Shown here piece after piece: positions 807 to 28,037 of a stretch of DNA of 32,133 bases. The notes beneath the pieces were generated by a model that saw only the letters and a list, made by a program, of their open reading frames with translations, ran no database searches and was not told the DNA's origin. The position numbers were made by a program, and so were the translations under genes. The stretch covers positions 1 to 32,133 of the IMG/VR virus record IMGVR_UViG_3300046777_000648; one strand, 5' to 3'. This DNA comes from a virus. Within the stretch, counting starts at the first letter, position 1. Each line of letters starts with the position of its first letter.

Positions 807-867
807 ATTATACCGTTTCTGGCAAAATAGTAAACCGGTGAAACTCCTGTAAAATCAATAACTTACG
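807..867 (-). promoter_or_regulatory. Early-type promoter P1 with conserved 39-bp upstream block
   Basis: On the minus strand the -10 box is TATAAT (807-812), the spacer is 16 bp, and the -35-like box is TTTACT (829-834). The TTTACT box begins a 39-bp block (829-867) that recurs without gaps at 1671-1709 and 3730-3768. It reads into the AAA ATPase gene, with TATAAT about 28 nt before the ATG. The distal end merges with a perfect 16-bp palindrome, TAACTTACGTAAGTTA (859-874), that covers the stop codon of the upstream gene. Confidence 0.85.
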
Positions 868-874
868 TAAGTTA
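859..874. repeat. 16-bp perfect palindrome at distal end of P1
   Basis: TAACTTACGTAAGTTA is its own reverse complement. Its right half supplies the TAA stop of the gene at 872-1237, and its left half is the end of the conserved promoter block. The other two copies of the block keep only the left half-site, so the full palindrome is special to P1. It could be a dimeric regulator site; that is inference. Confidence 0.6.
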
Positions 875-1237
875 CTGATTTCCTTCAATTTTCTCAATCC
901 ACTCGATCGCGTCTTCGGCTTCCGTATCCACGTAGCAGCCGGCATACTCGCCCAGCCGGTCGCGCAGTTCCTTCAGGAAGTGCTCGGCGGGCAGGAGAGC
1001 CTCGAGGTACGTGCGTCCGAAGTCAGCGACATACTTGTCGTAATCCGGGTGATCGGACAGGTGTCCGAGATCAGCCTGAAACGCATCGCAGACCGTGCAG
1101 GAGCCGAAGGAGTCGCTCACCCAGCCGACTTCGCCCTCGTAGGAAACCTGCGCATACCAGCGCCCGCTGTAAGAGCCAAAGTAGCGGAAATTCAGGACTT
1201 CGCCACCAGCCAAAGTCAAGGCATCAGAATAAGACAT
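872..1237 (-). CDS. Hypothetical protein, 121 aa
   Basis: I do not recognise this protein. It is acidic, soluble and rich in aromatic residues (repeated Tyr/Trp in the first 40 residues), with one close Cys pair (CTVC), no membrane segment and a Glu-rich C-terminus. The start at ATG 1237 is preferred over an in-frame TTG at 1249 because GAGGA sits 6 nt before the ATG. The start overlaps the end of the preceding small gene by 14 nt, so the two are probably translationally coupled. It is third in a short operon read from the promoter at 1649-1709. The base composition is visibly richer in G+C than the genes beyond 1.7 kb. Confidence 0.75.
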   Translation of the reverse strand: MSYSDALTLAGGEVLNFRYFGSYSGRWYAQVSYEGEVGWVSDSFGSCTVCDAFQADLGHLSDHPDYDKYVADFGRTYLEALLPAEHFLKELRDRLGEYAGCYVDTEAEDAIEWIEKIEGNQ

Positions 1238-1412
1238 TGTCGTCCTCAATCATCGACACACGCACACGGAACTGCCGAACAAACTTCGTGCAGGCGTCAC
1301 GGAAGAACCGCGCGAACGCAGTTTCCATCTTATCCTCAAAGTCTCTAGTGTACTCGATACTCGCGGGACCGATGTCCCCCTCGAACCAGACCTCAATCTT
1401 AGCCGTTTTCAT
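1224..1412 (-). CDS. Small hypothetical protein, 62 aa
   Basis: No family is recognised. The protein starts with a short beta-like stretch (MKTAKIEVWFEGD) and continues with a charged, probably helical segment rich in Phe and Arg. The ATG shares its first base with the last base of the upstream stop codon (position 1412), and the gene's 3' end overlaps the next gene by 14 nt. That packing, together with the operon position downstream of an early-type promoter, supports a real gene. The function is unknown. Confidence 0.65.
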   Translation of the reverse strand: MKTAKIEVWFEGDIGPASIEYTRDFEDKMETAFARFFRDACTKFVRQFRVRVSMIEDDNVLF

Positions 1413-1621
1413 TACAGCCCCAGAGCCGCGATACGGGCAAGGCGGTCCTCGGTGGACTCGAGGCTCTCGAGCCGCAGCTTGCGCTGCGCATACTCGGGCG
1501 AGTCGCAGATCGCGCTGAACTTCGCCAGCGCGTCCTTCTCGTCGAGTGCCATAAACTCGAAGAAGAACACCTTGTCAAACGCAGTCACCGAAGACCAAGC
1601 AACGACTTCGTAGTTCTTCAT
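1412..1621 (-). CDS. Small hypothetical protein, 69 aa
   Basis: No family is recognised. The N-terminus looks beta-like (KNYEVVAWSS), followed by an acidic and then an Arg/Leu-rich helical C-terminus; the composition of the segment around FMALDEKDALAKF recalls small phage proteins that process no obvious substrate. ATG 1621 is chosen because AAGGAAG precedes it at good spacing. However, two tandem in-frame ATGs at 1642 and 1639 lie exactly 6 bp after the TATAAT box of the promoter, so a leaderless longer form with 7 extra residues is possible. It is first in the operon 1621-872. Confidence 0.7.
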   Translation of the reverse strand: MKNYEVVAWSSVTAFDKVFFFEFMALDEKDALAKFSAICDSPEYAQRKLRLESLESTEDRLARIAALGL

Positions 1622-1648
1622 ATTCACTTCCTTATTCATCATAGGTTC

Positions 1649-1709
1649 ATTATACCTCAAGACGCTAAGAAGTAAACCGCTGAAACCCGAATAAAATCAA
1701 TAACTTACG
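1649..1709 (-). promoter_or_regulatory. Early-type promoter P2
   Basis: The -10 box TATAAT is at 1649-1654, followed by a 16-bp spacer and TTTACT at 1671-1676. The box starts the same 39-bp block seen at P1 and P3 (1671-1709). It faces the operon 1621-872. The far half of the block is repeated in tandem immediately upstream. Confidence 0.85.
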
Positions 1710-1737
1710 AAAACCCGAATAAAATCAATAACTTACG
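1682..1737 (-). repeat. Tandem 28-bp duplication of the promoter upstream element
   Basis: Two copies of a 28-bp unit lie head to tail. Each contains ACCCGAATAAAATCAATA followed by ACTTACG, and the shared segment begins at 1685 and at 1713. The second copy runs into the stop codon of the gene at 1733-2053. Only P2 carries the duplication, so it may alter promoter strength or be a slip-strand event. The repeat itself is certain; its effect is inferred. Confidence 0.85.
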
Positions 1738-2053
1738 CCAAGAGGTCGTTTTTCCTTAGAACGCGGATAACAGCAAGCGCAATACCGAATTCGTTGCGAC
1801 CGGTTTCCTGACCCCACCTCACGGCTTCCTTGACTTCATCGATGACTTCTTCGGTCATCGAATAACTGAGCTCTGTATAAGTAGCACCTTCAACGCAAGA
1901 ACGTTTTAAGTATTCCATGCCACCGTCAACTGCGACCGCGCCGCACTTGCAGCTTTTGCAATCATGACGATGCGCAGAGTACGGTTCATCGCCGCACTGG
2001 TTGCATCTAATTTGGTTCTGTATGATTCGCAACTGGACTTCTTTAGCTTTCAT
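1733..2053 (-). CDS. Zinc-ribbon phage protein (DUF7695-like)
   Basis: The N-terminal third has a zinc-ribbon pattern: C17 and C20 (CNQC), then HRHD and C32, C35, C37, followed by GAVAVDGGMEYLKR. This order (IRCNQCGD, HRHD, CGAVAVDGG) matches a small domain common in phage and prophage proteins, which I recall as DUF7695. The remainder is helical. ATG 2053 is chosen over ATG 2071 because GGAG sits 7 nt before it; it overlaps the upstream stop by 11 nt. It is the last gene of the cluster 2581-1733. The function is unknown; a zinc-dependent nucleic-acid or protein contact is plausible. Confidence 0.8.
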   Translation of the reverse strand: MKAKEVQLRIIQNQIRCNQCGDEPYSAHRHDCKSCKCGAVAVDGGMEYLKRSCVEGATYTELSYSMTEEVIDEVKEAVRWGQETGRNEFGIALAVIRVLRKNDLLA

Positions 2054-2369
2054 CTTTAGCTCCAGTATCATATTTCGCTAGTGCTTCCAATACATTTCGC
2101 CAACGCTGGGTGATATACAGTAATCTGGCTTCTTCAGAAGGAGGAGGAACCTTCTCCTCTTCCTCAATCAACTCATAATGACGTTCTAAGTATCCAACGC
2201 AAGAAAACAGTATCAATGGTGGATTGACTTTGGAGTTATAAAGAGCGTGGTACCAATCGTCCTTGGCATGTAAGATTCCAAGGTATGTGTAGACCTCATT
2301 GTTTGCAGGATTTCTAAACTTCCTATCCATTAGGGGACAGTAATCTTTGACGAGTTTATCCCAACTCAT
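2043..2369 (-). CDS. Hypothetical protein, 108 aa
   Basis: No family is recognised. The protein begins MSWDKLVKDYCPLMDRKFR, has a central hydrophobic strand-like stretch (PPLILFSCVGYL), an EEEE run and a Trp/Arg-rich C-terminal helix. The ATG at 2369 uses the last A of the upstream TAA (TAATG), a coupled start, so it is preferred over an in-frame TTG further upstream. The mid-protein sequence VYTYLGILHAKDDWYHALY suggests a small beta domain. It sits in the same transcription unit as the tRNA and the zinc-ribbon gene. Confidence 0.7.
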   Translation of the reverse strand: MSWDKLVKDYCPLMDRKFRNPANNEVYTYLGILHAKDDWYHALYNSKVNPPLILFSCVGYLERHYELIEEEEKVPPPSEEARLLYITQRWRNVLEALAKYDTGAKDES

Positions 2370-2581
2370 TATGAAATCTTGCCTAGAGTTAACCAAAGTA
2401 GATCGTCTAGTTCCTGCTGATAATCTTGCCGAAGTCTACGCTTCTGCCAAATCTTCTCTAGAAGCTTCTGAACATCCTCTGGACCAGACCAGACATCTAA
2501 CTGTCTAGCCTTGGCTTCTTTCAGAATATCATCATCCGAAAAATCATTCGAATCAATTTCAATTTCTCTATAGAAGCTCAT
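2369..2581 (-). CDS. Small acidic hypothetical protein, 70 aa
   Basis: A strongly charged, probably all-helical protein with an acidic first half (IEIDSNDFSDDDILKEA) and a basic, Gln-rich second half. No family is recognised. ATG 2581 is chosen because CAGGAG precedes it by 6 nt, and because any earlier start would run into the tRNA just upstream. The gene follows the tRNA by 18 nt, so the tRNA must be cut out of a shared transcript or transcribed through. The stop codon is shared with the next ATG (TAATG). Confidence 0.75.
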   Translation of the reverse strand: MSFYREIEIDSNDFSDDDILKEAKARQLDVWSGPEDVQKLLEKIWQKRRLRQDYQQELDDLLWLTLGKIS

Positions 2582-2599
2582 AATATACTCCTGATTGTG

Positions 2600-2676
2600 T
2601 GGTACCCGCAGTCGGATTCGAACCGACACTTGACGGATTTTAAGTCCGTTGCCTCTGCCTGTTGGGCTATGCGGGC
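2600..2676 (-). tRNA. tRNA-Leu(UAA), short variable loop
   Basis: A complete cloverleaf of 77 nt with encoded CCA. The acceptor stem GCCCGCA pairs with TGCGGGT (G-U first pair). The D arm is GCCC/AGGC-like, the anticodon stem ACGGA/TCCGT closes the loop CTTAAAA (anticodon UAA), and the T arm is GTCGG-TTCGAAT-CCGAC. The discriminator base is A, as expected for leucine. Unusually, the variable loop is only about 5 nt (CAAGT), whereas bacterial tRNA-Leu has a long extra arm. It would read UUA codons. It is the only tRNA I see in the window. Confidence 0.93.
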
Positions 2677-2680
2677 TGTG

Positions 2681-3079
2681 TTATTTTATCTTAGCTGCCA
2701 CTGCCTTAGCGTGGCGGCAATTACGGTGGTACTGAAAGCCCACGCACGTGCAGGAAAGCTTCGTGCCGTTGAGCGTTACCAAATAAGTGTGCTTCGTTGA
2801 CTTAACACGGAAGGCGCGAATACCGGAGGCTGCTGCCTTAGCGGAACCCTTAAGGACTTCCAGCTTGACAACGTTGCGCACTGAGATATTCCGGATCGGC
2901 ATGATCCGGTCGCCGGTAACACAGAATGAATCGGAGGAGTCCCAGCGCTCATTAGGAACAACGGTGCCTTCATACACCTGCTCGTTCCAAGGCTGCTGGT
3001 CCGCAGTCTTATAATAGTAATTCCGGAACCGTGTTGTGACGCGGACGGAAGAACCGACAGCGGGAATCATATTACTCAT
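2681..3079 (-). CDS. SWIM-type zinc-finger protein
   Basis: The C-terminus carries the SWIM pattern CxC...CxH, with C110 and C112 (SCTC) and C121/H123 (NCRH), preceded by a strand that reads YLVTLNGTKL as in other SWIM domains. SWIM domains bind DNA or partner proteins in ATPases, transposases and MEKK-like proteins. The first 80 residues form a basic beta-rich region with no recognised family. The ATG at 3079 has no clear ribosome site. It follows the previous stop by 15 nt, through a degenerate copy of the early-promoter upstream element. It lies 4 nt before the tRNA. Confidence 0.85.
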   Translation of the reverse strand: MSNMIPAVGSSVRVTTRFRNYYYKTADQQPWNEQVYEGTVVPNERWDSSDSFCVTGDRIMPIRNISVRNVVKLEVLKGSAKAAASGIRAFRVKSTKHTYLVTLNGTKLSCTCVGFQYHRNCRHAKAVAAKIK

Positions 3080-3082
3080 AGC

Positions 3083-3100
3083 AAACCAATAAAATCAATA
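3083..3100 (-). repeat. Degenerate copy of the early-promoter upstream element
   Basis: The plus-strand sequence AAACCAATAAAATCAATA matches the outer and inner parts of the 39-bp promoter block with about 11 bp deleted between them. No TATAAT follows at the right distance. It overlaps the stop codon of the gene at 3095-3370. It is probably a decayed copy of the element. Confidence 0.45.
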
Positions 3101-3370
3101 TGCAGGATAACAGTACTGAACCATGACCGGACGATTGAATGCGTCGTATCCCGGCACCCACTGGCAAACCATCGGAGGCTGCGAGTAAACCGGCGGCGGC
3201 GTGACGTATACCGGCGGCGCAGGACGGCGGATTCCGTCAACAATGATTCCACCAATAACGCCACCGACGATCGCGCCAACTAGCGCGTCTCTGCCACCGT
3301 TACCGTGCGCGTTTGCAGTGCCTGCAAAAAGCAGGCTGCCCAGCGCGAGAGTCGTGACTAGCTTTTTCAT
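3095..3370 (-). CDS. Exported glycine-zipper, proline-rich protein
   Basis: The first 22 residues form a clear signal peptide (MKKLVTTLALGSLLFAG, cleavage after ANA). The mature part holds a glycine-zipper segment (GAIVGGVIGGIIVDG, about 32-46) of the type that inserts into or spans membranes, then a proline/tyrosine-rich tail with two Cys near the end. It would act in the periplasm or outer membrane, perhaps altering the host envelope early in infection; that role is inferred. GAGG lies upstream of the ATG at good spacing. It is 7 nt downstream of the GIY-YIG gene, so the two probably share promoter P3. Confidence 0.85.
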   Translation of the reverse strand: MKKLVTTLALGSLLFAGTANAHGNGGRDALVGAIVGGVIGGIIVDGIRRPAPPVYVTPPPVYSQPPMVCQWVPGYDAFNRPVMVQYCYPAY

Positions 3371-3377
3371 ATAAACC

Positions 3378-3701
3378 TCAAAACGTATTCAGGCTCGGGT
3401 TGTAATACCCAATAAGTCGACGTTCAAGCTGGTGTGCATTTTTGCGCCCACGAACTGTCGCGAGGACTTCCTTGCGCCAAAACTTGGCGTCGTTCCACTT
3501 CCGCATGCACACGTGCATCGCCCAATCCTTCGATTCGTTGACTGCTCGTGAGAGGTGCTTTTTCCACCTATACTCTACGGTTTTCTTTTCGGAACGCGAG
3601 CTCATGGCTGTGACGCCGATATATCGCTCGCCTGTTACGAGGTTTGAAAACCTGTAAATTATATGCTTGCGGTCGCTACGCTTCCTGCGCTTTTTCACCA
3701 T
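3378..3701 (-). CDS. GIY-YIG family nuclease
   Basis: A 107-residue protein with the GIY-YIG core: IIYRF (Y16) and RYIGV (Y27), R45 in EYRWKKHL, and E93 in LERRLIGYYNPSLN, the usual Tyr/Tyr/Arg/Glu catalytic set. It begins with a very basic segment (MVKKRRKRSDRK) likely to contact DNA. Such stand-alone proteins in T4-like phages are often homing or recombination endonucleases. Start choice: ATG 3701 lies exactly 6 bp after the -10 box of promoter P3 and has no ribosome site, implying a leaderless mRNA. The frame stays open upstream to 3749, but that start would lie upstream of the transcription start. Confidence 0.85.
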   Translation of the reverse strand: MVKKRRKRSDRKHIIYRFSNLVTGERYIGVTAMSSRSEKKTVEYRWKKHLSRAVNESKDWAMHVCMRKWNDAKFWRKEVLATVRGRKNAHQLERRLIGYYNPSLNTF

Positions 3702-3707
3702 ACCATC

Positions 3708-3768
3708 ATTATATATGAAATGGTGAAAAAGTAAACCGTAGAAACCCAAGTAAAATCAATAACTTACG
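3708..3768 (-). promoter_or_regulatory. Early-type promoter P3
   Basis: TATAAT (3708-3713), a 16-bp spacer and TTTACT (3730-3735), with the 39-bp block at 3730-3768 shared with P1 and P2. It drives the GIY-YIG gene, whose ATG is 6 bp after the -10 box. The block ends one base before the stop codon of the gene at 3769-3963. Confidence 0.85.
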
Positions 3769-4960: not shown

Positions 4961-4966
4961 TATTTA
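4961..4966 (-). promoter_or_regulatory. Putative late promoter box (TAAATA)
   Basis: The minus strand reads CCTAAATAGAAGG, with TAA also serving as the stop of the 353-residue gene. It lies about 35 nt before the peptidase ATG. It belongs to a set of seven such boxes at gene junctions and resembles T4 late TATAAATA. Confidence 0.5.
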
Positions 4967-6025
4967 GGAAATCCGAAGAAGAATCGTGTCCTTGTTAAGT
5001 CTGCCGTTCAGGTTGGATGCCTTGGCATTGACTTCTTCAAGAACCTTTCGTAGAGCGATCTTACCGCCGTCCAGCACTGTCTTCAGTACCTTCTCAGGCT
5101 TTCGCAGAGTCTTACAAATAGAAGTATCGACGCTGTAGTTCAGAATAGAACTGCCCTTCACCATCAAGCCTGCAGCATCCAGTGCATTATAGACGCCCAG
5201 CTTGCGAGTCTTGACGTTGAAAACCCAAAGCTGGGAAGCACCGGGAATCTTGACGGGATCGATAGACTGCAGCTTGAACTCGTCGTTCTTCTGCAGGAAC
5301 TTGATTCCGCGCACCATCTTCTCAACGCTGACAGGCTTCTTCTTGCGAGGCTTACGGGCAGCCGATGCATTACTCGCAATCTTCTTGGCGTCAGCAATGA
5401 TGTTAGCGTAGCACTTAAAGATATTAAGTAGACGCGACTTGTTATACCCGCTGTAATACTCGCGCAGCTGAGGATCCTTTAGTGCATGCTCTAGTGCACC
5501 AAGACGAGCCTCGAAAAACTCCGCGATCTTACTTGCATGGATCGACTTGACTTCCTGCTTGGTGAACCACTGATATGCGTTCATCTTAGCAGCATCGCCA
5601 CGAATACCATATTCGTCGACCATGGCTTCCAGTTCAGCAATAAAGAAGTCAGTCTTAGCCTGCACCCTTTCCTGAATGGAAATGACGTTGTCTTCAACAA
5701 CGACAGCTGCAGCAACAGGAACCGGATCAGCCTTGGGCTTGATTAGCTCATTAAACTGATCAAGTAGCCGCTGGAAAGTTTCCTGACTGGGAACAGAAAA
5801 CTGGCAGCCTCTAGACTTCATGCGCATCGCCCAAGCAAGCGACGTAAACTTGCTGGCGACATAATTGTCCTTGATACCAAGATACTTTGCAGCATCCTTT
5901 TCGTTCTTATTTGTATTGTACCAAGAGAAGGCTTCGTGAATATCAGTCTGAGTGTATTCCCGATCCCATGTGGGCTCGGCATTAGTCTCAGAGATGCGCA
6001 CAACCTTAGAGGACTTCTTTGCCAT
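4964..6025 (-). CDS. Conserved phage hypothetical protein, 353 aa
   Basis: A mainly helical, basic protein. The first 75 residues look like a helix-turn-helix (DAAKYLGIKDNYVASKF). A flexible Ala/Val/Pro stretch follows (about 98-112), and a basic linker (ARKPRKKKP, about 225-233) leads into a C-terminal domain with LWVFNVKTRKLGVYNA and SVDTSICKTLRKPE. I recall similar C-terminal segments in unannotated proteins of T4-like cyanophages, but no function is assigned. The ATG follows the upstream stop by 4 nt. A DNA-associated role is suggested by composition only. Confidence 0.8.
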   Translation of the reverse strand: MAKKSSKVVRISETNAEPTWDREYTQTDIHEAFSWYNTNKNEKDAAKYLGIKDNYVASKFTSLAWAMRMKSRGCQFSVPSQETFQRLLDQFNELIKPKADPVPVAAAVVVEDNVISIQERVQAKTDFFIAELEAMVDEYGIRGDAAKMNAYQWFTKQEVKSIHASKIAEFFEARLGALEHALKDPQLREYYSGYNKSRLLNIFKCYANIIADAKKIASNASAARKPRKKKPVSVEKMVRGIKFLQKNDEFKLQSIDPVKIPGASQLWVFNVKTRKLGVYNALDAAGLMVKGSSILNYSVDTSICKTLRKPEKVLKTVLDGGKIALRKVLEEVNAKASNLNGRLNKDTILLRIS

Positions 6026-8696: not shown

Positions 8697-10967
8697 TCAA
8701 TCAAAAAAGAAGATCTGGAAAAGACGCGAGTTGTTTATATCTGTTCCAAAGTACTGTGTTGCTGCATGGAAAGAACGAGCATTAAAGATAACTAGTCGAT
8801 TAAAAACATTGCCAACATAATCAACCAGTTCAAACTTACTGCTGTCATAAAAGCCACCATCAAAACACCGGTCAGCGTTAGGGTGATCTTCCATGTGGCG
8901 AATACGGCTTTCTTTATGTGCATATAGTGCAGTTCCAGAACTAAACGGAGCATCAGGTGTGAGATAAATGAGCGCTGCCCATTGCTGTGTGTCATAGTGA
9001 TACACTAGAGGGTTTTCCGGAACACAGTATTGGAACTTCCCGTTCATGCCGTGTTCATCCCAACGTATGATCTTCTGACCCATGATCTGCTCGAACTGGT
9101 GCCTTACGCTAGGCATGTGCCAACGTTCGTAGGTTCTTCTGCCTTTGTACCAGTCAGAGTGATCTTCAAACTGCTGCTGTAGAGCAAATTGACGAACTAG
9201 GTTTGGATCGTCATAGAAGTCATCAACGACCCAAAGCATCTTACGAGGCTTCCGCTTGGCGACAAACACAGACTCCAGCTGGATAGCTTGAGTGCCGCCT
9301 ATAGCGATATCATGAAGCACCTTGCAATACGTGCCAGTATCATTGTACATGTTCGTATTGATCAGGAAGTAATAGTTCGGGAATGGATTCACTCGTGCAG
9401 CATCCATCATCTGGGTAGTATACTGAAGCATTCGCTTGAAGTCACGAAGTTCCCAGTGTATCTCTGCCAAGTAGATGAGGTGATCATTTCTTCCCGGAGC
9501 GAACGGGATAGCAGCCTCGTAAAGTTCAATCGCCTTGTCATATTCTTTCAAGAAGCGATATGCATTACCAGCACCACACAACGCATAGTATGCCATCTCG
9601 TCAATACCAGTGGGAACCAATCCACCGTGCTTAACAGTTACAACCTGAGTGAAGTAGAATATGACTCTTCTGGCATACTCTGACTGGTGTACGTCCTTAA
9701 GAGGGAAGAAGTCTCCGCGATAGCAATCTTCATATGACTTACCAATATACCAAAAGTGGTATAGGTCAGTAAGCATAGTGTTCTCTCGGATAAGCTTTTC
9801 TTCAAGCTTGAGAGCATCAGTCACATACTTTGTGGGTACAGTGTAGCTTTCGCCATAGGACTGACCCGCAACCATCTTGAACGTGGTTGGTAGGTTAGTT
9901 CTCTCGAAATTCTCACCAGTGACTCCATCATTCAGATAGATGGTTTCATGTGCCGGATCATGGTTAAACTTCCAAGGCAGGTTAGCGTCCCAGATCCATG
10001 CTCTGTAATAGATCAGCCCCGGCAGGATTGACGGAACATGGAAGCTCTTAGGCTTATGTTCCTTGATATCCCAGAACGGTTTCCAGTCAAAGCTTGGGTC
10101 AACCTCTAGGGTTTCATCACAATCCATCTTCATAATCCAATCGCATCCATGCTGCTCGTTTAGAGCAACCTGTAGCAAATGGTCACGGTTCCAACCAAAG
10201 TTCACCCAACCCTCTTCAACCTTATACAGCTTTCCCGGAATGCGAGTTTCTTTTGCCCACTGCTCAACAACCTCTGGAGTTCCATCAGTAGAACCATTGT
10301 CCTGAAGCACCCAATAATCGATATATGGTGTAACGGAGTCAAGCATTCTACGAATGTTCTTGGCTTCGTTCTTAAACATCGAGATCATGCAGATGTGAGA
10401 CCAAAGAGCATTGCCACTCTTATTAGGTCTCAGGTAGTTATAGTAGCACAGCGCATCATTAAGCTTAGTTGATCCGCCAGCAGCATGGTAGCAATCTTCA
10501 GCATAGAATCCATCAGCTTCATAGACCAGTCTATAGCGAATGTTCTTTGCTGCACTCCAACGAACCATATACTGCGCAGTGTCAACCTTGCCGCATACAG
10601 GTACGTCTGCGGCTTGAGCGCGAATCGAGTTGTTGGGGAAAGCCTGCGACCAATGAAGCATTGAGCACTTGCCTAGATGATCCTTGACGCCATCATACCA
10701 CTTCTCGTGGATGATGTTATCGTCGTCTAGGATATACAGCCAATCTTCATCATTAAGGTGATCCTTAAGAGTTTCTAGGGCAAAGTTCCTGTTCGGGTTG
10801 CCGAAGTATCCAGTATCTGGCGAATGAAGATTAACTGCACCTTCAATATCTGGCGGGTTAGTGACCTTGCTGTCATAAACAATAACCCAAGTGCACTCTG
10901 CTGGAATAGTCTTCCGCATAGCTTCTAGGTTGAAAGGTCTGGTGCAGGGTGTGATAATGTAAATCAT
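8697..10967 (-). CDS. Multi-domain glycosyltransferase with TPR and 2OG-oxygenase domains, 756 aa
   Basis: A very large fusion. Residues 1-185 form a first GT-A-like domain with YILDDDN (78-84, DxD). Residues 190-345 are a GT2 domain (CMISMFKNEAKN, QDNGSTDGT at 222-230, MKMDCDE at 279-285). About 455-560 contain TPR-like helical repeats. About 575-756 match a 2OG-Fe(II)-oxygenase-like fold, with HYD (H657/D659), FHAA (H734) and SRLFQIFFF (R748); I recall similar tails as DUF6445. It would transfer one or two sugars and perhaps hydroxylate the same target. GAGG precedes the ATG by 5 nt. Acceptor and sugar are unknown. Confidence 0.9.
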   Translation of the reverse strand: MIYIITPCTRPFNLEAMRKTIPAECTWVIVYDSKVTNPPDIEGAVNLHSPDTGYFGNPNRNFALETLKDHLNDEDWLYILDDDNIIHEKWYDGVKDHLGKCSMLHWSQAFPNNSIRAQAADVPVCGKVDTAQYMVRWSAAKNIRYRLVYEADGFYAEDCYHAAGGSTKLNDALCYYNYLRPNKSGNALWSHICMISMFKNEAKNIRRMLDSVTPYIDYWVLQDNGSTDGTPEVVEQWAKETRIPGKLYKVEEGWVNFGWNRDHLLQVALNEQHGCDWIMKMDCDETLEVDPSFDWKPFWDIKEHKPKSFHVPSILPGLIYYRAWIWDANLPWKFNHDPAHETIYLNDGVTGENFERTNLPTTFKMVAGQSYGESYTVPTKYVTDALKLEEKLIRENTMLTDLYHFWYIGKSYEDCYRGDFFPLKDVHQSEYARRVIFYFTQVVTVKHGGLVPTGIDEMAYYALCGAGNAYRFLKEYDKAIELYEAAIPFAPGRNDHLIYLAEIHWELRDFKRMLQYTTQMMDAARVNPFPNYYFLINTNMYNDTGTYCKVLHDIAIGGTQAIQLESVFVAKRKPRKMLWVVDDFYDDPNLVRQFALQQQFEDHSDWYKGRRTYERWHMPSVRHQFEQIMGQKIIRWDEHGMNGKFQYCVPENPLVYHYDTQQWAALIYLTPDAPFSSGTALYAHKESRIRHMEDHPNADRCFDGGFYDSSKFELVDYVGNVFNRLVIFNARSFHAATQYFGTDINNSRLFQIFFFD

Positions 10968-25951: not shown

Positions 25952-26479
25952 CTACTTTAAGAAAGACTCCAGCATCCAGTTAAGTTTTCTGCTTTCTGCG
26001 ATCATTTCATCTAGGAAGTTCGCAAGGTCAGAATAACCGGAAGCTTCTGCTGCTCGGCGGGCTGCTTTCAGCCCAACTAGAATAATTTGATTGTCTGCCT
26101 TGAGCGTGTTAAACATTGCCTTAACATCGTCCGGCTTACTATTTAGTTCTTTGAGGTCTGCTGCGTTGATTAGTTGAGATAGTGAACTTGGAGCATAGTC
26201 ACCGAACTGACGGATGTACTCTGCCAGAGGATCAAGTCTCTCGAACGCAGTAGTGTAGACCTTCGAGAAAAACTCATGGTGCTCGGCGAAGTTAATACCT
26301 TCGACGTTCCAGTGGAAACTGTGAGCCTTGAAGTAGAACACCATAGTATCTGCAAGCACTGCAGTCAGCTGCTTGATCAGCGCGGCATCCTGCGGCTCTA
26401 CTGCCTCCACGATTTCCGTGGACTCGGAGAGCTTCTTTTCAATTAGTTTCTGTTTCACTTTGTTCCTATCAATAATCAT
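25952..26479 (-). CDS. Dps-like ferritin
   Basis: A 175-residue Dps/ferritin-fold protein. The ferroxidase pattern is present: H56 (FHWNVEGINF), H68 (HHEFF), and D83/E87 (ERLDPLAEYI), spaced as in Dps. The Asp expected four residues after the second His is Ser here (S72). The N-terminal 30 residues are basic-to-acidic and may bind DNA. Dps proteins oxidise Fe(II) with peroxide and coat DNA. Start ATG 26479 follows the upstream stop directly (TAATATG). Sitting among structural-like genes, it may be packaged or protect DNA late in infection; that is inferred. Confidence 0.88.
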   Translation of the reverse strand: MIIDRNKVKQKLIEKKLSESTEIVEAVEPQDAALIKQLTAVLADTMVFYFKAHSFHWNVEGINFAEHHEFFSKVYTTAFERLDPLAEYIRQFGDYAPSSLSQLINAADLKELNSKPDDVKAMFNTLKADNQIILVGLKAARRAAEASGYSDLANFLDEMIAESRKLNWMLESFLK

Positions 26480-26480
26480 A

Positions 26481-28037
26481 TTAGCAATCCCATGCACGAC
26501 GCGACCAGTAGTTTGCCTTGGTCTTGTCAGTGGTGTTACCTTGACCCGAAGAACGCGCACAGTACGACTTCTTGCGGCTAGCAATATGCTTCTTAATGCT
26601 CAGCTTTTTGTCGCCGAAGTTAACCTTCTTGACGTTACCGGTCTCTGGGTCTTTGACAAACACCTTAGACTTCTTAACGTCGCCCTTCATTGGCTTGTTC
26701 AACGGAACTTCTCTACCCTGATACTCAGCTTCATTGATGAACTCTGAGAACTTCTTAACTCCAGTTCCTTCTGTCTGCGTTAGACCGCCGAGGCTATAGC
26801 CACCGGCACCATCAATACGCATGTTCATATTGTTAGCAGGAACTGACTTGCCTTTCTTTCTGGGCTTTGTGTCCAGAACAGCTGGCTTAATGGTATCTTC
26901 TTCCTTTACAGGAACGCAGTTAGGAACCTTTCTGCCGTTCTTCATCTTCATACCAACTGCGGTATAACCCTTCCAGCAGGCATCCTTCAGCTTACCGGTT
27001 GGCTTCTTGACTTCTTCCATAGTCAGACCACGGTCTAGTAGGAACTGCAAGTAAGAAGCAATCTGAACCTGAAAGCCAGATAGTTCTTCTGAACTGGCTT
27101 CCTGTAGGTTGATCGAGTTATCGAACACAAAAGTGTCCTCGAAAATTCTGCTGGCTCTTTCAGCCTCGAGCCACTTCTTGATACGAGTCGACTCGTTCAT
27201 AGGCTTGGAGCGTTCTAGGTTTCTTTCTCTGCTTACCTTGTTGCTCACGGAAACAAGCGTGTACGAGAAATCATAGTCCTCGCCCAAGGTATTCTTTACA
27301 AGATTAATCTTGTCCAGATCGGCTGGAGCGTTGATCAGTAGGTTGCTTTCTGATTCAAGCAGTTCCTTTACCGAGCCTACCAGAATCTGGTCTAGCTGAA
27401 CTTCTACTAGATCGAACCGAGACAGGATATTGTTGATCACATAATCCTTACCACTTCCGGGTGCACCAATAATGACCATAGCTGACTTAGTAGATTCTGA
27501 CATAGTTTTCTTAATCCTGTCGTGTAGATGAGCGCCTAGCTTCTTATCTGAGTAGTGGGAAATGAATTCGTCGCGTTTGCCGGAGGTAACTAGATTCCTT
27601 AGCTTGGATGCAGACATACCCTCTGCACCCTCGGCGTCTGGGTCGCGATGACCAGCCGACTTAACCTCAATCTTCTTGAAGTTGTATTCTTTGCCGTTGT
27701 ACTTATGCAGTAGCTTGTGGAAATCGCCGACTCTATCGTCGCCGACCACCATGGTCACATGAGTGTGACCTTTCTTTTCGAGATGCTTCATAGCATCAAT
27801 CGCGGTATGGATACCTTTATGGGAGGCAATATTAGCACCCGAGAACATCTTCTTCATTGCGCCGACCTTTTCTTCGTGGTGCAATGGATTCTTTTTTCTA
27901 TCTTGGGTGTGGGAAGGGAAAACGTAGTGGCTACCGCCCGACTTCTCAGCGTGGTCTTTGACTGCTGAAACAAGCTTCCCGTGTCCGGCTTCGGATGGAG
28001 GATTAAAACGACCGAACGTGAACGTTGCCTTACTCAT
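26481..28037 (-). CDS. Multi-domain nucleotidylyltransferase / P-loop protein, 518 aa
   Basis: Residues 1-175 are a cytidylyltransferase/NMN-adenylyltransferase-like domain: FTFGRFNPPSEAGHG (6-20, the HIGH-type site) and VVGDDRVGDF with SASKLRN (142-148). Residues 185-310 are a P-loop kinase-like domain (VIIGAPGSGKDYV, 188-200). Two further segments, GKLKDACWKGYTAVGMKMKN (348-367) and a C-terminal Cys/Trp block (YCARSS...RRAWDC, 492-518), are modules that I recall from virion-type proteins of T4-like phages. It is unusual to find them fused. A TAAATA box lies about 30 nt upstream. Confidence 0.85.
   Translation of the reverse strand: MSKATFTFGRFNPPSEAGHGKLVSAVKDHAEKSGGSHYVFPSHTQDRKKNPLHHEEKVGAMKKMFSGANIASHKGIHTAIDAMKHLEKKGHTHVTMVVGDDRVGDFHKLLHKYNGKEYNFKKIEVKSAGHRDPDAEGAEGMSASKLRNLVTSGKRDEFISHYSDKKLGAHLHDRIKKTMSESTKSAMVIIGAPGSGKDYVINNILSRFDLVEVQLDQILVGSVKELLESESNLLINAPADLDKINLVKNTLGEDYDFSYTLVSVSNKVSRERNLERSKPMNESTRIKKWLEAERASRIFEDTFVFDNSINLQEASSEELSGFQVQIASYLQFLLDRGLTMEEVKKPTGKLKDACWKGYTAVGMKMKNGRKVPNCVPVKEEDTIKPAVLDTKPRKKGKSVPANNMNMRIDGAGGYSLGGLTQTEGTGVKKFSEFINEAEYQGREVPLNKPMKGDVKKSKVFVKDPETGNVKKVNFGDKKLSIKKHIASRKKSYCARSSGQGNTTDKTKANYWSRRAWDC

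What the first reader, a model, noticed from the sequence alone, without database searches (positions are those of the whole stretch)
807..3768. Promoter family with an ungapped 39-bp upstream block and fixed 16-bp spacer
Three promoters (807-867, 1649-1709, 3708-3768) carry TATAAT, exactly 16 bp, then TTTACT, then the rest of a 39-bp block in which 33 of 39 positions are the same in all three. The last 18 bp, CGTAAGTTATTGATTTTA on the minus strand, are identical in all three copies. Host sigma70 does not need this much upstream identity, so the block looks like a specific site for a phage regulator, an altered alpha subunit, or a phage sigma-like factor. It is confined to the early-type region.
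Basis: partly seen in the sequence, partly recalled or inferred. Interest (0 to 1): 0.8.

Follow-up and report, generated by a model that had tools for sequence, protein, structure and literature searches.

The report
IHF-site promoters in T4-like phages
The repeated block is almost certainly a binding site for the host's DNA-bending protein IHF, placed at a fixed distance upstream of ordinary phage early promoters, so an uncultured T4-like phage family seems to boost its early genes with a host protein rather than a phage-made regulator.

Summary
In detail: three minus-strand promoters (TATAAT, 16 bp, TTTACT) share a 39-bp block identical at 33 positions.

The reverse strand reads AATCAATAACTTA, an exact match to the IHF consensus WATCAANNNNTTR. 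The same 13-bp core finds the three IHF sites of lambda attP with no mismatch. In relatives collected without using the motif, the core lies 18 bp upstream of the -35 in most cases, with a T-run 9 bp beyond it (the A-tract side, as in lambda H'). Across IMG/VR the core-to-TATAAT distance peaks at 40-42, while bacterial chromosomes and a permuted core show no such promoter peak. No HU/IHF gene was found in 47 phage contigs, so the binder is most likely the host's.

Best explanation: a dispersed family of sigma70 early promoters with an IHF bend centred at about -59, replacing the A-rich UP element. Precedents are lambda pL and Mu Pe. The rigid, genome-wide geometry appears new and was absent from 19 cultured phages tested. 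Binding and activation are inferred, not shown.

The parts
807..834 (-). Copy 1 sigma70 promoter: -35 TTTACT 829-834, 16-bp spacer, -10 TATAAT 807-812; predicted +1 at 800; drives the T4 nrdC.10-like AAA ATPase gene (start codon at 779)
   Evidence: +1 inferred from the conserved A 7 nt after the -10
853..865 (-). Copy 1 IHF core TAAGTTATTGATT (reverse strand AATCAATAACTTA = WATCAANNNNTTR), centre -59; short T-run (IHF A-tract side) at 841-843
866..883 (+). Inverted degenerate second core (TAAGTTACTGATT at 868-880, one mismatch) head to head with copy 1
   Evidence: inverted pairs recur in L138
1649..1676 (-). Copy 2 sigma70 promoter: -35 1671-1676, -10 1649-1654; predicted +1 at 1642; drives the small ORF ending at 1412
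1695..1707 (-). Copy 2 IHF core, centre -59
1723..1735 (-). Tandem second IHF core, 28 bp upstream of the copy 2 core, within the 27-bp repeat 1711-1737; its TAA (1733-1735) is the stop codon of the upstream ORF
   Evidence: tandem pairs recur in L126 (37 bp) and G036 (28 bp)
3708..3735 (-). Copy 3 sigma70 promoter: -35 3730-3735, -10 3708-3713; predicted +1 at 3701 = A of the ATG of ORF 3378-3701 (leaderless; GIY-YIG-type endonuclease)
3754..3766 (-). Copy 3 IHF core, centre -59

Best explanation
Each block is a binding site for integration host factor (IHF, the host's sequence-specific DNA-bending protein) centred at about -59, just upstream of an otherwise ordinary sigma70 early promoter. 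IHF would bend the upstream DNA sharply back towards RNA polymerase, letting the alpha C-terminal domains contact IHF or upstream DNA, and so raise promoter strength at the start of infection without any phage protein. The core is the 13-mer YAANNNNTTGATW on the promoter strand. The T-run next to the -35 is the A-tract half of the IHF footprint, not an UP element. Extra tandem or inverted cores at two of the three promoters would add a second bend. SHOWN by sequence: exact consensus, fixed geometry, conservation in relatives, enrichment at promoters in viral contigs, no phage HU/IHF gene found. INFERRED: that IHF binds, that it activates, early timing, and a host that has IHF.
For: Consensus: the reverse strand of every copy contains AATCAATAACTTA, an exact WATCAANNNNTTR. 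As a positive control, the same core finds three exact sites in lambda attP, at the places known as H1 (TAAGTAGTTGATT), H2 and H'. In H' a T6 run lies 8 bp after the core on the TTGATW side; here a T-run lies 9 bp after it. Relatives chosen by the nrdC.10-like ATPase, not by the motif: the core occurs 92 times in 382 kb against 14-15 for permuted cores, and nine relatives (L126, L128-L134, L138) have it, with a -10 40-42 bp on, just upstream of the ATPase. Promoters picked by -35/-10 alone: 23 of 43 in the close group carry an exact upstream core, 21 at exactly 18 bp before the -35 and 2 at 19. Variation: the N4 positions vary (GTTA, GTCA, GTTG, GCCA, GTGA), as for an IHF site. Collection-wide: 40 of 118 core-TATAAT pairs lie at 40-42, 27 of them with a -35; a permuted core gives 18 of 114, none with a -35. 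Bacterial chromosomes show no such promoter peak (2 of 21 with a -35). No PF00216 (HU/IHF) gene in 47 contigs, controls positive.
Against: No binding or expression data exist. The host is unknown, so the presence of IHF is not shown. The window's own A-tract is short (AAA only). GT at the first two N4 positions is more conserved than the textbook consensus demands, which leaves room for another protein or an HU-family variant. T4-like phages whose hosts should have IHF (T4, KVP40, Cr30, phiM12, PhiW-14) lack the architecture, so IHF in the host is not sufficient. Exact cores were required by the scan; only searches are motif-blind, and the close group was defined by having the motif at the ATPase.
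Confidence: 0.76

Rival explanations
1. The block binds a phage-encoded regulator (early activator or repressor) that happens to recognise an IHF-like sequence.
For: Only some viral lineages have the architecture. Positions GT inside the core are more conserved than IHF needs. Scans of bacterial chromosomes show no comparable promoter family.
Against: The consensus is the known IHF one, including the A-tract side, and finds the lambda attP sites. The core also occurs beside tRNA genes in some viral contigs, as expected of att sites. It recurs in contigs that share no tested gene with the window. Early promoters should work before any phage protein is made, unless the factor is injected.
Confidence: 0.13
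2. It is an AT-rich UP element recognised by the alpha C-terminal domain alone (as in T4 early promoters), with chance resemblance to IHF.
For: The position (-40 to -65) overlaps the UP region, and the far relatives carry an A-rich stretch at the proximal UP position.
Against: The conserved core contains conserved G positions and variable bases in the middle, unlike A/T-tract UP elements. The T-run is on the opposite strand to the UP consensus A-run. Close relatives show TAAGT..TTGATT where far relatives show no such sequence.
Confidence: 0.07
3. It marks the 3' end of the upstream gene (stop codon plus terminator or processing signal), and the promoter link is secondary.
For: The TAA of the core is the stop codon of the upstream ORF in 34 of 118 cases. 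The inverted pair at copy 1 can fold into a 14-pair hairpin, z -2.7. Inverted pairs recur in L138.
Against: Copies 2 and 3 fold no better than shuffles. Only 8 inverted upstream partners were found among 118 promoters. A terminator would not explain the fixed distance to the -35.
Confidence: 0.04

Closest known systems
Bacteriophage lambda pL (IHF plus distant UP element; Giladi et al. 1998, cited in PMC1784095)
   Same: Strong sigma70 phage early promoter helped by IHF bound upstream, with a UP element involved
   Different: No exact consensus core was found in the lambda pL stretch; one promoter in a temperate phage, not a dispersed family with fixed core-to-(-35) spacing
Bacteriophage Mu early promoter Pe (IHF-stimulated; PMC3820752 and its refs 35-38)
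   Same: Exact IHF core upstream of an early promoter
   Different: Core in the opposite orientation and about 33 bp (not 18) from the -35 (read); single site; transposing temperate phage
T4 early promoters (UP/-35/TGn/-10 class; PMC2988021)
   Same: T4-like phage, early-type region, strong host-type promoter, upstream conservation beyond the -35
   Different: T4 uses A/T-rich UP elements and Alt-modified alpha; T4 itself has none of the core-promoter pairs
lambda attP IHF sites H1, H2, H'
   Same: Same 13-bp consensus; H1 differs from the window core at 2 of 13 positions; H' has its T-run 8 bp from the core against 9 here
   Different: Recombination sites, not promoters

Membership tests
IHF binding site | Match to WATCAANNNNTTR | tested here: met
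   4 exact copies in the block and its tandem copy; permuted core 14-15 against 92 in relatives
IHF binding site | A-tract about 8-9 bp 5' of WATCAA | tested here: met
   Strong T-run 9 bp after the core in relatives; only 3 bases long in the window itself
IHF binding site | Central four bases free to vary | tested here: met
   Many N4 variants at promoter sites, though GT is preferred at the first two
IHF binding site | Bound and bent by IHF in vitro; host has ihfA/ihfB | not testable with these tools
   Host unknown. One window gene (4964-6025) has phage homologues almost only in phages of Proteobacteria, which is only a hint
IHF-stimulated phage sigma70 promoter (lambda pL, Mu Pe) | IHF site upstream of a -35/-10 promoter at a constrained position | tested here: met
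   Core 18 bp before the -35 in 30 of 39 and 21 of 23 motif-blind cases
IHF-stimulated phage sigma70 promoter (lambda pL, Mu Pe) | IHF raises transcription, alpha CTD involved | not testable with these tools
   Needs in vitro transcription and an ihf deletion
T4 early promoter with UP element | A/T-tract UP element at -40 to -60 | tested here: not met
   Conserved G-containing core and T-run instead of A-run
T4 middle promoter | MotA box near -30 replacing the -35 | tested here: not met
   Intact -35 TTTACT, and the block lies upstream of it
Promoter with a phage-made HU/IHF homologue | PF00216 gene in the phage | tested here: not met
   0 of 47 contigs; control genomes positive. Most contigs are fragments

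The most novel reading that the evidence does not exclude
IHF acts here as a true promoter-specific activator at a class I-like position (-59), in fixed register with the -35, across a genome-wide family of early promoters in lytic T4-like phages. It replaces the UP element and is often coupled to leaderless early mRNAs. The phage's early programme would then depend on host IHF level and growth phase, making IHF a host factor for infection.
Probability: 0.4. Interest if true: 0.68.

Novelty: new variant of a known kind. Interest (0 to 1): 0.5.

Why it matters
Known IHF-helped phage promoters (lambda pL, Mu Pe) are single sites in temperate phages. Here the same trick appears as the design of a whole dispersed promoter class in uncultured T4-like phages, with a geometry rigid enough to test how IHF and RNA polymerase alpha work together. 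It suggests that such phages read host physiology (IHF abundance) at the first step of infection. It also gives a simple sequence rule (core, 18 bp, -35, 16-17 bp, -10) for finding their early genes, a third of which may be leaderless.

Tried and rejected
Terminator or RNA element: copies 2 and 3 fold no better than shuffles, and Rfam finds only the tRNA. UP element alone: the pattern of conservation is wrong. Phage HU/IHF: none in 47 contigs. Cultured examples: whole-record pattern searches of 19 named phages found no real architecture hit, only unrelated chance matches; short BLAST queries gave isolated IHF-like sites in other contexts. Plasmids: no match. Bacterial chromosomes: no peak of promoters at 40-42; the spike at 36 is a repeated, apparently coding sequence shared by several loci, some of them Methylococcaceae. 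Literature: the core strings occur in no relevant paper of the library, and a combined search on IHF, phage, early promoters and conserved motif found none. A phylogeny of the ATPase shows the trait clustered but needing 5 changes on the tree (quick tree only), so the promoter type turns over. Host identification was not resolved.

Full report
WHAT WAS CHECKED. The 18-mer has four exact copies and one degenerate inverted copy in 32 kb, against 0.03 expected. The fourth copy (1720-1737) is part of a 27-bp unit repeated in tandem at copy 2. The window is a fragment of an IMG/VR virus. It encodes gp41-type helicase, gp61-type primase, ribonucleotide reductase, thymidylate synthase, endolysin, a tRNA-Leu and a T4 nrdC.10-like ATPase. 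Its helicase is nearest to those of cyanophages and Methylophilales phages (72%), so it is a T4-like phage outside the cultured groups.

WHAT THE BLOCK IS. Read on the other strand, the block contains AATCAATAACTTA, an exact match to the IHF consensus WATCAANNNNTTR. As a positive control the same consensus was run on lambda attP and returned three exact sites, at the places known as H1, H2 and H' (the site names are from general knowledge). H1 is TAAGTAGTTGATT against TAAGTTATTGATT here. H' carries a T6 run 8 bp beyond the core on the TTGATW side.

MOTIF-BLIND RELATIVES. Thirty-five loci were fetched with the ATPase protein alone. In these plus the window (382 kb) the core occurs 92 times, against 14-15 for permuted or reversed cores, and exact TATAAT boxes cluster 40-42 bp after it. 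Directly upstream of the ATPase gene, L126, L128-L134 and L138 have a perfect core with a -10 at 40-42; more distant relatives do not. When promoters are picked only by -35 and -10, 23 of 43 in the close group carry an exact upstream core, 21 at exactly 18 bp before the -35 and 2 at 19. In the far group only 3 of 87 have one, and an A-rich stretch sits at the proximal UP position instead. Caveat: the close group was chosen because it carries the motif at one gene, so the fraction is not a prevalence; the constancy of position is the point. In 39 aligned sites the core-to-(-35) gap is 18 in 30 while the spacer is 16 or 17, so the core is registered to the -35, not the -10. The T-run lies 9 bp after the core. 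The N4 bases vary (GTTA, GTCA, GTTG, GCCA, GTGA), with GT favoured.

COLLECTION-WIDE TEST. A permuted core gave 18 of 114 at 40-42, none with a -35. In bacterial chromosomes 21 of 117 fell at 40-42, 2 with a -35. So the arrangement is a phage feature. In all, 114 distinct architecture promoters in 76 loci were collected. Many lie on contigs sharing T4-like genes with the window, one with a 91% identical NrdB (L082); others share no tested gene on the stretch held. A 197-kb relative (G036) has ten such promoters, all at 41 bp, in four clusters, mostly before small genes of unknown function; bare core matches elsewhere are near the chance level.

WHO BINDS. No HU/IHF gene (PF00216) was found in 47 contigs including the window, while the control genomes ring. 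The simplest binder is host IHF. The host is unknown. One window gene has phage homologues almost only in phages of Proteobacteria, which is weak evidence for an IHF-bearing host.

HOW IT WOULD WORK (inferred). With +1 at the conserved A 7 nt after the -10, the core is centred at -59 in all three window promoters (arithmetic). IHF there would bend the upstream DNA back on RNA polymerase, with the alpha CTDs contacting IHF or the returning DNA. [quoted passage not shown] Double cores recur (11 direct and 8 inverted upstream partners in 118 promoters, permuted control 0), so a second bend may help.

LIMITS. No experiment supports binding or activation. T4, KVP40, Cr30, phiM12, PhiW-14, Melnitz, HTVC008M, S-SM2, Aeromonas 25 and ten other named phages show no real architecture hit, so no cultured model is at hand. 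Novelty is judged from an open-access library only.

VERDICT. A real, well-conserved regulatory design; observation right, interpretation redirected from a phage factor to host IHF. New variant of a known kind.

Noticed in passing
window 3701-3713 and 114 related promoters: In 36 of 114 architecture promoters an ATG lies exactly 6 nt after the -10 hexamer, so about a third of these early mRNAs may be leaderless; window copy 3 is one of them.
   Followed up: partly
window 1733-1735 and relatives: The TAA of the IHF core doubles as the stop codon of the upstream ORF in 34 of 118 cases.
   Followed up: partly
L255, minus-strand positions near 710, 3542 and 3996 (counted from the minus-strand start): Three promoters with the same core but only 33 bp before TATAAT: a second, shorter geometry in another phage lineage.
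   Followed up: no
L138, core pairs near 5877/5893, 7609/7625, 8204/8220 and 9995/10011: Nearly every promoter core in this contig is part of an inverted head-to-head pair, like copy 1 in the window.
   Followed up: no
far relatives such as L135-L151: Promoters of more distant relatives carry an A-rich stretch at the proximal UP position instead of the IHF site, which suggests the two are interchangeable in evolution.
   Followed up: partly
window 8697-10967: Large fusion protein with a glycosyltransferase-like part and a C-terminal domain shared with cyanophage 2OG-oxygenase or minor-coat annotated proteins.
   Followed up: no
window 25952-26584: Ferritin/Dps-like domain protein in a T4-like phage.
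   Followed up: no
L015, L021, L050, L106, L110: The same core sits beside apparent tRNA sequences in other viral contigs, as expected of integrase att sites with an H'-type IHF site.
   Followed up: no
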